Shown in pieces: positions 24,985-28,928 of a DNA stretch of 64,000 nt. The notes under the pieces are model-generated. The model was not told the DNA's origin. It saw nothing but the letters and a program-made list of their open reading frames with translations, and made no database searches. The stretch lies in assembly GCA_029204225.1 (NCBI GenBank), contig CM055096.1:45849346-45913345 (forward strand). Direction: 5' to 3'. Both the position numbers and the translations under genes were made by a program. The stretch comes from Diphasiastrum complanatum (taxonomy: Eukaryota; Streptophyta; Lycopodiopsida; Lycopodiales; Lycopodiaceae). How positions within the stretch are numbered: position 1 is the stretch's first letter; each line of letters begins with the position of its first letter.

Positions 24985-25165
24985 GGCAGTAACGTGAATA
25001 TCGCACTTGTGCGCGCGGGAGAATTGAACCAAAACTAACTATTAAAATGGTGCAGAAGATGGATATGTACGGCAGACAGATACAGAATATCGCACTTGTG
25101 TGCGAGTAGGTATAGTTGCAAGTAAATGGACAGCAATGAGCGCACAAAAAAGCGATATGTTGCGA
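24985..25165 (-). promoter_or_regulatory. Upstream motif array of the unknown minus-strand gene
   Basis: Copies of the core ATATCGCACTTGTGCGC, given on the plus strand, lie at 24998-25016 and 25087-25104. A reverse-orientation copy (CGCACAAAAAAGCGATAT) lies at 25141-25158. The nearest copy is 14 bases before the ATG. The same module, in the same order and spacing, precedes the CENH3-like ORF at 28681-28928. Confidence 0.7.
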
Positions 25166-25284
25166 ATTTCGAGAATGCAAAAGGTAAAAAATTATTCGGT
25201 TTTCGTGCCATTTATACTAAATTTTTGCACGTGTGGTCAACGGACTTATGCCACTTGTCTATTTCAATTGGACAACAGGCGCAG

Positions 25285-25405
25285 ACACGTGTGAGATGAC
25301 ACCTGCACACGTGTGAAATGACACCTGAACACGTGTCGCGTGTTCATTCGATTGCTCATAAACACGTGTCACTCTCGCATTCGATGGTACAAATCCCACA
25401 CGTGT
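25285..25405. promoter_or_regulatory. Array of five ACACGTGT G-box palindromes
   Basis: The perfect 8-bp palindrome ACACGTGT occurs at 25285-25292, 25307-25314, 25329-25336, 25362-25369 and 25398-25405. The first three are exactly 22 bases apart, about two helical turns, with GACACCTG between the second and third. CACGTG is the plant G-box/ABRE core bound by bZIP and bHLH factors. The array lies upstream of the minus-strand gene starting at 24984 and also upstream of the plus-strand gene beginning near 26.0 kb. Confidence 0.8.
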
Positions 25406-26020
25406 AAAGTGAATGCCCTCCTTCTAAGAAATCACAATATCAACTACATTAGAATGGAAGGCTAGCTCTTAAGGAGGGTGGAGAGGCAATGGCCACAGAG
25501 ATGGCATCATGATCTATTCTTGACCATGCTCCAGAGAAGCTCAACATTGTTCTGATTAACAAAGGCAAGAAAGAGGTGCCACGTGAACCAGAGGAGGAGG
25601 AGGCGAGCATAGCTACATTTTTTATCAATGGAATCCCGTGACTTACATAAGTGTTCTTCAATTTGTTCCTTTGATGTGCCATTTTTGTGTTTCCATTCGG
25701 GATGCATGTGCAAATGGGAAAAACAATTTGGAATATCATACAATGAGACAGCTTATGGAAAGAAGATGCACATTACGGAGAGTAAGAAAGGGAAAGGTCA
25801 CTACTTACGGGACTAATTTGGTATTCATAGATTTGTCGACTGGATATTTGTGTGATGGTGTGGTTGGTAGCAAATCTACTTGGAATCAGTGGTCAGTCAG
25901 TGTCTTGGAGGCTTCGCTAGATATTGCATTGATTATTCTTGATGACAGTGGTTAGATTGTCATGTTAAGTCCACTCGCATATAGATTCTAGGTCGAGATT
26001 TAGATTGGTCGACATACTTT
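25406..26020 (+). other. Coding-looking relic of unknown family
   Basis: Plus-strand frames read APEKLNIVLINKGKKEVP with an acidic tail near 25530-25620. A 105-codon open frame at 25638-25955 contains TTYGTNLVFIDLSTGYLCDG. No splice sites tie these to the downstream exons and no family is recognised, so they could be remains of an older gene or transposon. Confidence 0.25.
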
Positions 26021-26028
26021 AAGTGTCT

Positions 26029-26035
26029 ATAAAAG
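26029..26035 (+). promoter_or_regulatory. Possible TATA box
   Basis: CTATAAAAGGG places TATAAAA about 260 bases upstream of the first recognised exon of the unknown plus-strand gene. This suggests transcription starts near 26060 with at least one upstream intron. Confidence 0.4.
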
Positions 26036-26291
26036 GGTCGATTTGAAAGGTGTTGAGAAATTCGAAACTAGCCTAGATGGGTCAAGTGTATGTGACTCAA
26101 AACTTGCTTTTTCTTCTATTTTGTTATTTTGTTCTTCTAGTTCTTGGCCAGTGCAACTCTGATTTTATATGAAAAGAATAAGAAGTAAACTCTTTGTTTT
26201 TGTAGATGCATTTTCTACATGTCTATTTGATGGGCAGGAAAGGCTATTCTCCCTCAATTCATCGAGATCGTGCTTAGGCCTTTGATTCTAG

Positions 26292-26984
26292 TTATTTAGT
26301 GTGGACACCGATCATTGGACTCACTACCTTCCACACTCAGAATGGTCGATTGACAAGTTGACAGGCAAGCCATTAAGAGGTAGCACCAAAAAAAGTGAGT
26401 ACTTCATGCTCCTTCTTATGTCTGCATTTTGCCCATAAGGTGGTATTGATGTCGACTTCCTGATTGGCACTAGGACCTCAGTGTTGGTTGCACGCAAGGT
26501 GAGTGTCCATCTGTTTGGCGTGGACAATGACGAGGCATGCGTGGCATGGATAAAAATAAGTAGAGGTAATGTATGTTGTGATTATTTGTTTTAGCATCCA
26601 TACTTATAGAAACTGCATTATTTTTATGTCTCCAAATTTCTAATTTTCGTATTTCTTTTTGCAGTTTTAGACATCATAGAAGCAGTGACCAAATCTGTTG
26701 TGGATGAGGACACAACTGTCCCTGAGTTGGGTTCGAGAGTACACAAAATTGGCTCTCCAGGCCAATAGTAAGTGTTTTTTTGCTCTTGTTCTTTAGCATG
26801 TATTTTCTTTTTGAGATTCTCAACAAATTACATTTGATGTAGCGCTTTGCCTTGCTATGCAGAATCCTTGGCCAGAACAATGGAGCAGCTTAATGATGAG
26901 CATTCCAATCATTTGGGACGGAGAGCATCTAAGAGATGCGTGTTTGTCGACGATGAGGCATTGGAAGCCTCTGTTGAGGACTGA
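26292..26984 (+). CDS. Unknown gene, four in-frame 3' exons
   Basis: Four exons join without any frame break: 26292-26394, 26440-26565, 26665-26767 and 26843-26984, with stop TGA at 26982-26984. Junction phases are 1, 1 and 2. Donors are GTGAGT, GTAATG and GTAAGT; acceptors end ATAAG, TTGCAG and GATGTAG. Together they give 157 residues with the blocks DHWTHYLPHSEW, VDFLIGTRTSVLVARKVSVH, LDIIEAVTKSVVDEDTT and GRRASKRCVFVDDEALE. The acidic/basic tail could suit a nuclear protein. The 5' end is unresolved: an acceptor (TTCTAG, ending at 26291) precedes the first exon listed, and the first coding exon may lie between 26060 and 26270. I do not recognise the family. Consistent phase across three introns without stops argues that the gene is real and not badly decayed. 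Confidence 0.5.
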
Positions 26985-27191: not shown

Positions 27192-27330
27192 AGAGAGAGA
27201 GAGAGAGAGAGAGAGAGAGAGAGAGAGAGAGAGAGAGAGAGAGAGAGAGAGAGAGAGAGAGAGAGAGAGAGAGAGAGAGAGAGAGAGAGAGAGAGAGAGA
27301 GAGAGAGAGAGAGAGAGAGAGAGAGAGAGA
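27192..27330. repeat. (GA)n microsatellite, about 139 bp
   Basis: Uninterrupted AG dinucleotides. Reading frames through it encode only Ser-Leu or Arg-Glu repeats and are not genes. Confidence 0.97.
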
Positions 27331-27639
27331 AAAATAATACCGATATTTCATGTATTTCCATTGGAACCATAGACCCATCACTACCAACCAATCATATTAT
27401 GTAACAACATATGAAAGAGAGAGAAAAAGTCGTCCATAGGACAACCTAAGTTAAGGACGAGGGCTACCCTTTGTCTTGGGGTTGGGTAGCTGGTTTAGAG
27501 AGCTCTATATAGTTCGAATGACTAATTTAGACCCATCATTGTGGCCTCAGTTTTGGGTTTGTACTTGTGTTCTAGACTTGGGTGTGGTGCTAGCATCATT
27601 TATGTCAAATTGTATTAGGTTTGGTTGCATTGGTTGGGT
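27331..27639. other. Spacer
   Basis: No supportable gene. A 71-codon open frame at 27476 runs into the minisatellite that follows. Confidence 0.35.
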
Positions 27640-28180
27640 CAGTCATGTACGAGATTGGTTCGGTTGGATTAAGTTGGATCATTCGTGTTGAATCATTACG
27701 ATTATGACAGTTGAGTTGGGTCACTTGCATTAGGTCCTTTGGGATATGACAGCTAGGTTGAATGAGTTGAATTGAGTCAGTTGGGATAGGACAGTAGGAT
27801 TAAGTTGGTCAGTTGAATTATGTCGATTTGGGGTAGGTCAATAGGGTTGGGTCGGTGGGATGAGGTCAGTTTAGGTCAGTTGGGTTGGGTCATGACAATT
27901 ACGTCATTTGGGTTAAGGTTGGGTTAGGACAGTTGGATTGGATCAATAGATTACATTATGTCAATTGAATCAGGTCGGTTGAGATAGGTCAGTTGGATTA
28001 AGTCAATTGGGTTGGGTCAGTTAGGTTAGATCAGTTGGTTTGAATAAGTTAGGTTAGGTTAGTTGAATTAGGTCAATTGGGGCACATTAGTTGGCTGGGG
28101 TAGGTCAGTTGGGATAGCTATGTCAATCGGGGTAGGTCAGTTGGGTTACATTGGTTCGGTCAGTTGGGTTACACTGGTTC
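27640..28180. repeat. Degenerate GGTCAGTTGGGTTA minisatellite
   Basis: Dozens of variant units built from TCAGTTGGGTTGGGT, TTAGGTTAGATCAGTTGG and similar strings, on the plus strand. It is G-rich and T-rich on one strand, like telomeric DNA, but lacks the TTTAGGG plant telomere unit. It ends about 60 bases beyond the 3' end of the CENH3-like ORF. Confidence 0.8.
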
Positions 28181-28242
28181 ATGTTTTCTCACTGCAATTT
28201 AGTTTAAGTTATTCTACAATACATATGAATCGTATTGCGCTC

Positions 28243-28665
28243 TTATATCAAGAAAAGTGAGGGTTTGAAAATGCTTGAAATCATAGACCTTTCACATGGT
28301 CTCTGAATGAATGGTCTATGCTCTGAAGTTCGGTGGCCGACTGTGGGAAAAGCTCCTTGACTTATTTCCTTCCAAAGCCCTCTAGTATAATCTTCAGCAG
28401 CCTTCTGAAGGCACTGAAGAGCACTCGGTGTGAATCTAACGTGCTGTCCGAGATCATTTCTTGTTATGTTCCAGACAGCACGGTAGAATGGAGCTCTTGG
28501 GATCAACAGAGTTGTTGACCTCTGATATTTGCGTATCTCAGAGAGCCACCTACTATGGTTGCACGTTCTAGGTCTAGCAGGTGGTGTGATGGCAACCGCA
28601 TGAGTTGAGGATGAGCCATGAGAGAAGAAGTCCCTCCTTGTCTGCTTTCTCCTATCCATGATCAT
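28243..28665 (-). CDS. CENH3-like divergent histone H3, single exon
   Basis: The 140-codon frame starts ATG 28665. After a basic Ser/Pro-rich tail unlike that of canonical H3 (no ARTKQTARKS), residues from about 42 read SEIRKYQRSTTLLIPRAPF, matching the alpha-N and alpha-1 region of H3. The LLIP string is, as I recall, the CENH3 form and not the canonical LLIRKLPF. Loop 1 appears one residue longer than in H3.1. Alpha-2 reads SALQCLQKAAEDYTRGLW; AAEDY is again CENH3-like. The C-terminal third is divergent: prolines fall in the expected alpha-3 (RTSEHRPFIQRP) and an unrelated tail follows. Plant CENH3 genes normally have several introns, so a one-exon copy may be a retrocopy or a captured fragment. 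It could be a decayed pseudogene or a specialised variant. Its upstream region matches that of the unknown gene at 23467-24984. Confidence 0.6.
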   Translation of the reverse strand: MIMDRRKQTRRDFFSHGSSSTHAVAITPPARPRTCNHSRWLSEIRKYQRSTTLLIPRAPFYRAVWNITRNDLGQHVRFTPSALQCLQKAAEDYTRGLWKEISQGAFPTVGHRTSEHRPFIQRPCERSMISSIFKPSLFLI

Positions 28666-28680
28666 GAACTATGTGAGAGC

Positions 28681-28928
28681 GGACTTGTGCGTGAAGGTTA
28701 GGATGAGAAGGGAGAGATGATAAAGAACTCGTAGAGGACCGCTATGTACGGACAGAATGTACGATATATCGGACTTATGCGAGCCGAATATCAGAGAGAA
28801 CAATTAGATCTGAGGAAAGATTCACAAGTGCGATATGGGGTGACACGTAGGCAAATGTATCGGGCTTGTGCGCATGGAAGGCAGTAGGAGAAATTTCGAT
28901 TGTGAAGGGCGCGCACAAATGCGATATG
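28681..28928 (-). promoter_or_regulatory. Upstream motif array of the CENH3-like ORF
   Basis: Variants of ATATCGCACTTGTGCGC, plus-strand orientation, lie at 28681-28691, 28761-28784 (ATATCGGACTTATGCGAG) and 28857-28873. Reverse copies lie at 28823-28837 (CACAAGTGCGATATG) and 28910-28928 (CGCGCACAAATGCGATATG). The nearest lies 16 bases before the ATG. A shared TATGTACGG string precedes the second copy both here and at 25.07 kb. Confidence 0.7.

What the first reader, a model, noticed from the sequence alone, without database searches (positions are those of the whole stretch)
24985..28928. Two unrelated genes share one upstream module of repeated ATATCGCACTTGTGCGC motifs
The region before the unknown gene (ATG 24984) and that before the CENH3-like ORF (ATG 28665), both on the minus strand, carry the motif in the same order, orientation and spacing. 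Measured from the ATG: a direct copy at about 14-16 bases, another at about 96-103 bases preceded by a shared TATGTACGG, and a reverse copy at about 157 bases. The coding regions are unrelated. Short motifs in both orientations near an end recall the subterminal repeats that transposases bind. The two units may therefore be ends of one transposon family with different cargo, one of them a captured centromeric histone. Alternatively, two host genes share a promoter.
Basis: partly seen in the sequence, partly recalled or inferred. Interest (0 to 1): 0.9.

Follow-up and report, generated by a model that had tools for sequence, protein, structure and literature searches.

The report
Clubmoss transposon carrying its own histone
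The repeated motif sits in front of two genes of one jumping-gene family, found in hundreds of copies in what is very probably a clubmoss genome, that carries its own altered version of the DNA-packaging protein histone H3, preserved by natural selection, next to an enzyme predicted to be shaped like the one that rearranges vertebrate antibody genes.

Summary
In detail: copies of ATATCGCACTTGTGCG lie at matching distances before both ATGs. Genome search finds 1,306 exact copies of the 16-mer, reversed control 0. Fetched copies show one element of about 9 kb with terminal inverted repeats CATTAGAGGAGTTCTC... (2,009 hits genome-wide, control 0). The window holds its left end at 14062. Inside, gene 1 and an H3-like histone gene are divergent neighbours; the motif arrays sit before these two genes, mid-element, not at its ends. 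In the window the element breaks at 25412, and a truncated histone piece lies inverted at 28382-28952.

In intact copies the histone fold is complete and fused to a long C-terminal part; dN/dS of the fold is 0.17 over 16 copies, so it was maintained as an element protein. The main enzyme has a predicted RAG1/Transib-like fold. The H3 tail keeps K4, but K9 is Asp in 13 of 15 readable copies. Centromeric identity is not supported; target duplications were not established. Host: very probably Diphasiastrum complanatum (inference). Precedent: a fungal hAT element with an H3-like gene (PMC3538342).

The parts
14062..14095 (+). Left terminal inverted repeat (transposase-side end) of the element in the window
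   Evidence: 22 of 22 bases identical to the family TIR; the 34-mer occurs 2,009 times in the genome with up to 2 mismatches, control 0
14062..25412 (.). Large remaining piece of the element (a copia retrotransposon is nested in it)
   Evidence: 79-98% to other copies (87% or less only in L032, L048, L044); the 7 loci shown that reach 25412 all stop there (13 loci shown)
14573..15622 (+). 5' part of the RAG1/Transib-like transposase gene (T), interrupted by stops
   Evidence: stop-to-stop pieces homologous to copies C, D, E; the start coordinate is an estimate from a 3' splice site read by eye
15619..21787 (+). Nested copia LTR retrotransposon with 5-bp target duplication TGGAA (LTR body 15624-21782)
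   Evidence: LTRs 98.3% identical; flanks; pol ORFs
21788..23196 (+). 3' part of T: acidic residue plus CxxC region (22132-22482) and, after an intron inferred by eye, the Glu region (23044-23196)
   Evidence: fold of the homologous ORF in copy E
23467..24984 (-). Gene 1 (G1), convergent with T; broken by an in-frame stop at 24535 and a frameshift near 24030; one intron inferred at about 23911-23985
   Evidence: 83% to the G1 of copy E over 300 codons
24996..25160 (-). Module A: motif array in the predicted 5' leader of G1 (direct 24998, direct 25087, reverse about 25141-25158)
25210..25216 (-). TATA box of G1 (TATAAAT), upstream of module A
   Evidence: sequence; same placement in copies L003, L005, L023, L027 (5 loci scanned)
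25285..25405 (.). ACACGTGT (G-box type) array between the two modules, cut at 25412
   Evidence: five of the 8 copies in the window, 0.24 expected
28382..28952 (-). Second, inverted piece of the same element family: module B plus the first part of the histone gene
   Evidence: 80-93% to nine other copies; 8 of 9 end at 28952, L025 at 28933
28674..28929 (-). Module B: motif array in the predicted 5' leader of the histone gene (28676, 28766, 28821 reverse, 28857, 28912 reverse)
28243..28665 (-). Truncated H3-like histone ORF; homology to intact copies ends after about 98 codons, so the third histone helix is missing
   Evidence: Pfam Histone E 5.6e-14; 79% to the histone of copy E over 98 aa

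Best explanation
The shared module is the motif array before two divergently transcribed genes of one DNA transposon family of about 9 kb in what is very probably a clubmoss. Order in copies D and E: TIR - T (RAG1/Transib-like transposase, +) - G1 (-) - module A - G-box array - module B - histone fusion gene (+) - a tentative fourth gene (-) - TIR. In the window a copia element sits in T, and the G1 half and a truncated histone half are separated and mutually inverted. The histone gene is a maintained part of the element. Shown: anatomy, copy number, TIRs, purifying selection on the histone fold, motif conservation. Predicted: the RAG1-like fold of T, and that the modules are transcribed leaders. 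Inferred (about 35%): an element protein, perhaps G1 or the histone fusion itself, recognises the motif lattice, and the H3-like protein is loaded on element chromatin, where its tail, lacking Lys9 in most copies read, resists H3K9-methylation silencing and keeps both genes expressed.
Confidence: 0.78

Rival explanations
1. The histone is passive cargo (a Pack-type or transduplicated host gene) carried by the transposon, with no role for the element.
For: Transposons capture host gene fragments, and an H3-like gene in a fungal hAT element was described as transduplication (PMC3538342, passages seen). 10 of 16 copies lack an intact fold.
Against: dN/dS 0.17 in the fold at mean dS 0.59, lower than for G1 or T. 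The histone gene has the same kind of leader lattice as G1. L025 keeps the histone gene and module B while G1 is deleted.
Confidence: 0.12
2. The motif array is a promoter/enhancer for a host transcription factor; its repetition reflects ordinary regulation of the transposon genes by the plant, not an element-encoded protein.
For: The arrays are next to conserved TATA boxes and a G-box-type ACACGTGT array. CACTTG is an E-box-type core (recalled).
Against: All 22 distinct loci fetched by the motif carry the element's lattice, so the long motif looks element-specific. It lies downstream of the TATA box, that is probably in the transcribed leader.
Confidence: 0.3
3. The modules are transposase-binding subterminal repeats.
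For: Short motifs in both orientations resemble En/Spm subterminal motifs (recalled).
Against: The modules lie 3.4-4.9 kb from the TIRs in copies D and E. With up to 3 mismatches no motif copy lies elsewhere in the five 40-kb regions.
Confidence: 0.05
4. The element is of viral origin (an integrated DNA virus whose genes share a promoter motif and which encodes a viral histone).
For: Several genes, shared promoter motif, histone gene.
Against: TIR-flanked element with introns and a RAG1-like enzyme; no viral structural match for T with E <= 0.001, no relative in IMG/VR contigs, no viral hallmark above its cut-off among the 8 element proteins and pieces scanned in Pfam.
Confidence: 0.03

Closest known systems
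Pyrenophora tritici-repentis hAT element with H3L gene (Manning et al. 2013, PMC3538342; passages seen)
   Same: A TIR DNA transposon with an internal ORF and an H3-like histone gene that matches neither H3 nor CENH3 completely.
   Different: Fungus, hAT transposase, 5.6 kb, 26 very similar copies, interpreted in the passages as possibly drifting. Here: very probably a lycophyte, RAG1-like transposase fold, about 9 kb, hundreds of diverged copies, histone fused to a long C-terminal part, purifying selection, motif lattice before the gene.
Transib / RAG-like transposons (ProtoRAG, AanRAGL; Tao et al. 2022, PMC9435367; passages and section 1 part 1 of 2 seen)
   Same: Predicted RAG1 core fold; acidic residue-CxxC-HxxxxH-Glu order; a second gene convergent with the RAG1-like gene; TIRs. 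Potential Transib-like proteins are already reported from plants there (39).
   Different: TIR begins CATTAGAGG, not a CACARTG-type heptamer; no 5-bp TSD seen; no RAG2-like protein recognised; further genes including a histone.
VANDAL/VANC anti-silencing system of Arabidopsis (2017, PMC5735166; passages seen)
   Same: A plant DNA transposon with dense short motifs in its own non-coding regions, specific to the family.
   Different: VANC is not recognised here; motifs are in both orientations with fixed spacing rather than same-orientation arrays; a histone is encoded.
CENH3 / CENP-A
   Same: Loop 1 one residue longer than H3, LLIPRAPF in helix 1, divergent tail (recalled reference sequences).
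   Different: Keeps RF where the plant CENH3 compared have RW/RY; slightly nearer to H3; motif and TIR copies dispersed along chromosomes in the listed part (C1, C2); a fusion protein of 337 or more residues.

Membership tests
RAG1/Transib transposase superfamily | RAG1 core fold | tested here: met
RAG1/Transib transposase superfamily | Catalytic Asp-CxxC ... HxxxxH - 20 - Glu arrangement | tested here: met
   Alignment with recalled mouse RAG1: block 12/50 identities, 1 of 20,000 shuffles as good (block chosen by eye); local score 57, 2 of 500 shuffles as good. First Asp not fixed.
RAG1/Transib transposase superfamily | Sequence profile match (Pfam/PDB) | tested here: inconclusive
   No match in Pfam or PDB by sequence
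Transib / RAG-like transposon | CACARTG-type terminal heptamer | tested here: not met
   Ends read begin CATTAGA
Transib / RAG-like transposon | 5-bp target-site duplication | tested here: inconclusive
   None in 5 of 5 end pairs; one pair has a 3-bp match
RAG-like transposon | Convergent RAG2-like (kelch/PHD) gene | tested here: inconclusive
   G1 is convergent with T, but Pfam finds no kelch or PHD in its pieces
CENH3 | Longer loop 1 | tested here: met
   One residue longer than H3 (recalled references)
CENH3 | Closer to CENH3 than to H3; RW at helix 2 start | tested here: not met
   Four close copies: 50-53% to H3, 46-51% to plant CENH3; RF retained. The distant L039 histone has RW and is 42% / 37-43%
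CENH3 | Centromere localisation | not testable with these tools
   Needs ChIP or imaging
Histone H3 family | Complete H3 histone fold | tested here: met
   Copy E: Pfam 5.1e-24, PDB H3 8.3e-22 over helices N to 3; the window copy lacks helix 3
VANDAL/VANC anti-silencing | Family-specific motif arrays in non-coding regions | tested here: met
VANDAL/VANC anti-silencing | VANC protein and MULE transposase | tested here: inconclusive
   No Pfam match above cut-off in the T, G1 and fourth-gene pieces scanned
hAT H3L element (Pyrenophora) | hAT dimerisation domain | tested here: inconclusive
   No Pfam match in T pieces

The most novel reading that the evidence does not exclude
A RAG1-like plant transposon builds its own silencing-proof chromatin: it encodes an H3 variant that keeps Lys4 but has lost Lys9 (and the Lys27 context), fused to a targeting domain, and delivers it to motif lattices in its own gene leaders.
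Probability: 0.3. Interest if true: 0.93.

Novelty: new variant of a known kind. Interest (0 to 1): 0.8.

Why it matters
Transposons fight chromatin silencing, but a DNA transposon that has kept its own H3-family histone under selection over long divergence would be a direct chromatin-level weapon and a natural source of histone variants. It would also place a RAG1-like recombinase with a convergent partner gene in an early-diverging vascular plant, bearing on how RAG-type elements acquired accessory genes. Hundreds of dispersed copies with intact and broken versions give natural material to test which residues matter.

Tried and rejected
Protein database searches with the window histone fragment and with gene 1 found nothing. 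Looking for TIRs by aligning module flanks within the window gave nothing above shuffles; the ends came from comparing genomic copies. Subterminal-repeat reading rejected because the modules are mid-element. CENH3 identity left unproven. D/R arms as an RNA hairpin: looked at by eye in the aligned sites, arms do not match each other well; not tested statistically. Viral library match for T: none with E <= 0.001; no relative in viral contigs (23 stretches matched a peptide pattern, none confirmed). The structure of the histone fusion was unusable, so it was not searched. A count of Lys9 tails was asked for four times in one form and never answered; a count of KQTARDFF tails, of tails with any residue at position 4 and of the helix-3 pattern did not complete either. 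With any residue at position 9 the pattern gives 705 hits but its control 389, so non-Asp copies cannot be counted from it. Families absent from the structure list are not excluded.

Papers: seven searches. That no other report of a histone-encoding plant transposon was found rests on 45, 59, 60 and 112, in open-licence PMC full text only. PMC8355894 was seen in passages and not used.
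Full report
Observation. The motif is present as described and far beyond chance (6 matches, 0.04 expected, 0 of 100 shuffles). It lies upstream of both ATGs in the same order relative to each gene. A weight-matrix scan, built from six of the sites, puts the eight module sites among its nine best; one unrelated site (42040, 11.1 bits) scores just above the weakest module site (28674, 10.8 bits). 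The two regions otherwise align only modestly better than shuffled sequence, and a semi-global alignment no better, so what is conserved is mainly motif plus spacing. In 22 distinct genomic loci the spacing is the same: direct to reverse 53-56 bases in 48 of 54 steps, reverse to direct 35-36 in 23 of 38 (most others cross from one module to the next), same-direction neighbours 89-91 in 20 of 25.

Genome context. The window's genome is held (1.745 Gb). The 16-mer occurs 628 + 678 times, the reversed control 0 + 0. Thirty 3-kb loci (22 of them distinct copies) and five 40-kb regions were fetched. In the three copies first read in full (L003, L005, L008) gene 1 points one way and a histone gene the other, with module A, an ACACGTGT-rich stretch and module B between them. 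L003 has a complete histone fold followed by a long open frame.

Element ends. Comparing the five regions gives shared limits: copy D 9,373 bases, copy E 9,018; copies A and B share the histone-side end and C the transposase-side end. The ends are inverted copies of CATTAGAGGAGTTCTCAATATCAAAAAGACCCTTT. With up to 2 mismatches the 34-mer occurs 980 + 1,029 times, control 0. The window has it at 14062, 22 of 22 bases identical. Of 5 end pairs, 4 show no target duplication and one a 3-bp match, so the duplication is not established.

What happened in the window. The stretch 14062-25412 matches other copies at 79-98% (87% or less only in L032, L048 and L044), and 28382-28952 matches nine copies at 80-93%, inverted relative to the first piece (13 selected loci shown). 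The seven loci shown that reach 25412 all stop there. A copia element with 98.3% identical LTRs and a TGGAA duplication is nested in the transposase gene. Gene 1 has an in-frame stop and a frameshift. The histone piece ends before helix 3. Between the pieces, only an AG repeat matches those loci.

The histone. In copy E the ORF is 337 codons, followed by what looks like an intron and a further exon (read by eye), with a full Histone domain (Pfam 5.1e-24) and H3 as best PDB match (8.3e-22). Across 16 copies dN/dS is 0.17 in the fold, 0.35 in the tail, 0.58 in the linker, 0.34 in the C-terminal part (stop codons and gaps left out). In the 6 copies with an intact fold it is 0.13; G1 gives 0.37 and a T exon 0.61. 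Selection therefore acted on the histone while the element multiplied. In four close copies the fold is 50-53% identical to H3 and 46-51% to plant CENH3 (recalled references), with loop 1 one residue longer than H3 but RF rather than RW, so I call it H3-like only. After Met the tail mostly reads D-R-R-K-Q-T-R-R-D-F-F, in register with H3 A-R-T-K-Q-T-A-R-K-S-T. Of the 15 copies (of 16) whose tail could be read, 14 have Lys at position 4 (L023 Arg); at position 9, 13 have Asp, L040 Glu and L008 Lys. The DNA pattern for KQTxRDFF occurs 575 times, control 0; two of the 25 matches printed have Ala7 as in H3. A distant histone in L039 starts ARTKQIALPQ, also without Lys9, but is frame-shifted. With an H3 query the genome gives 13 hits at 87-89% and more than 100 at 46-57%, spread over C1 to C23, two of them in frames of over 400 codons (150 candidates scored of 6,103).

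The module. TATA boxes lie just outside both modules in the five loci scanned, so the arrays are probably transcribed leaders (inference). Motif columns are more conserved than other columns in 14 copies (0.875 against 0.776; 0 of 2,000 random window sets). The loci were found by exact motif hits; after excluding, at each site, the loci found through that site, 7 of 8 sites remain more conserved than their flanks. Conservation, both orientations and fixed spacing suggest a DNA-binding target. Which protein binds is unknown.

Mechanism. Best guess, 35%: an element protein reads the lattice and the histone variant is placed on element chromatin, where loss of Lys9 blocks the host's H3K9 methylation. 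Analogy: VANC proteins bind short family-specific motifs in VANDAL elements and induce loss of DNA methylation and derepression (PMC5735166, passages seen). Against it: no biochemical data; one copy keeps Lys9; and a sister element in L042 with related TIR and 25% identical G1 shows neither motif nor recognisable histone.

Prior art. A hAT element with an H3-like gene is known from one fungus (PMC3538342, passages seen). Potential Transib-like proteins are reported from plants (PMC9435367). I found no report of a histone-encoding plant transposon in searches.

Noticed in passing
window 43153-47851: A second young LTR element (LTRs 43153-43603 and 47401-47851, 98.2% identical) with reverse transcriptase/integrase pol and a chromodomain integrase C-terminus.
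   Followed up: partly
window 27600-28170: A degenerate 14-bp minisatellite (TTGGGTTAGGTCAG-like) and an (AG)n tract at about 27190-27330, in the stretch between the two element pieces.
   Followed up: no
window 25450-27000: Short + strand coding-like pieces between the two element fragments; the four scanned have no Pfam match; origin unknown.
   Followed up: partly
L042:913-5465: A distant sister element: related TIR, G1 homologue at 25% identity, but no motif and no recognisable histone.
   Followed up: partly
L039:1534-1878: A distant H3-like gene (37% to the element histone) with an ARTKQ start and RW in the fold, frame-shifted; possibly another histone-bearing element family.
   Followed up: partly
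L063-L065 and L066-L068: Element ends sampled from two dense clusters on C1 (three each; 65.1-65.5 Mb and 95.9-99.1 Mb) share their flanks within each cluster, so these copies were probably amplified inside a larger repeated unit.
   Followed up: partly
L025: A deletion derivative that joins transposase sequence to module B and the histone gene, with gene 1 missing.
   Followed up: partly
P0027: An annotated Diphasiastrum complanatum protein fuses calmodulin-like sequence to a fragment of the transposase; probably an annotation artefact.
   Followed up: no
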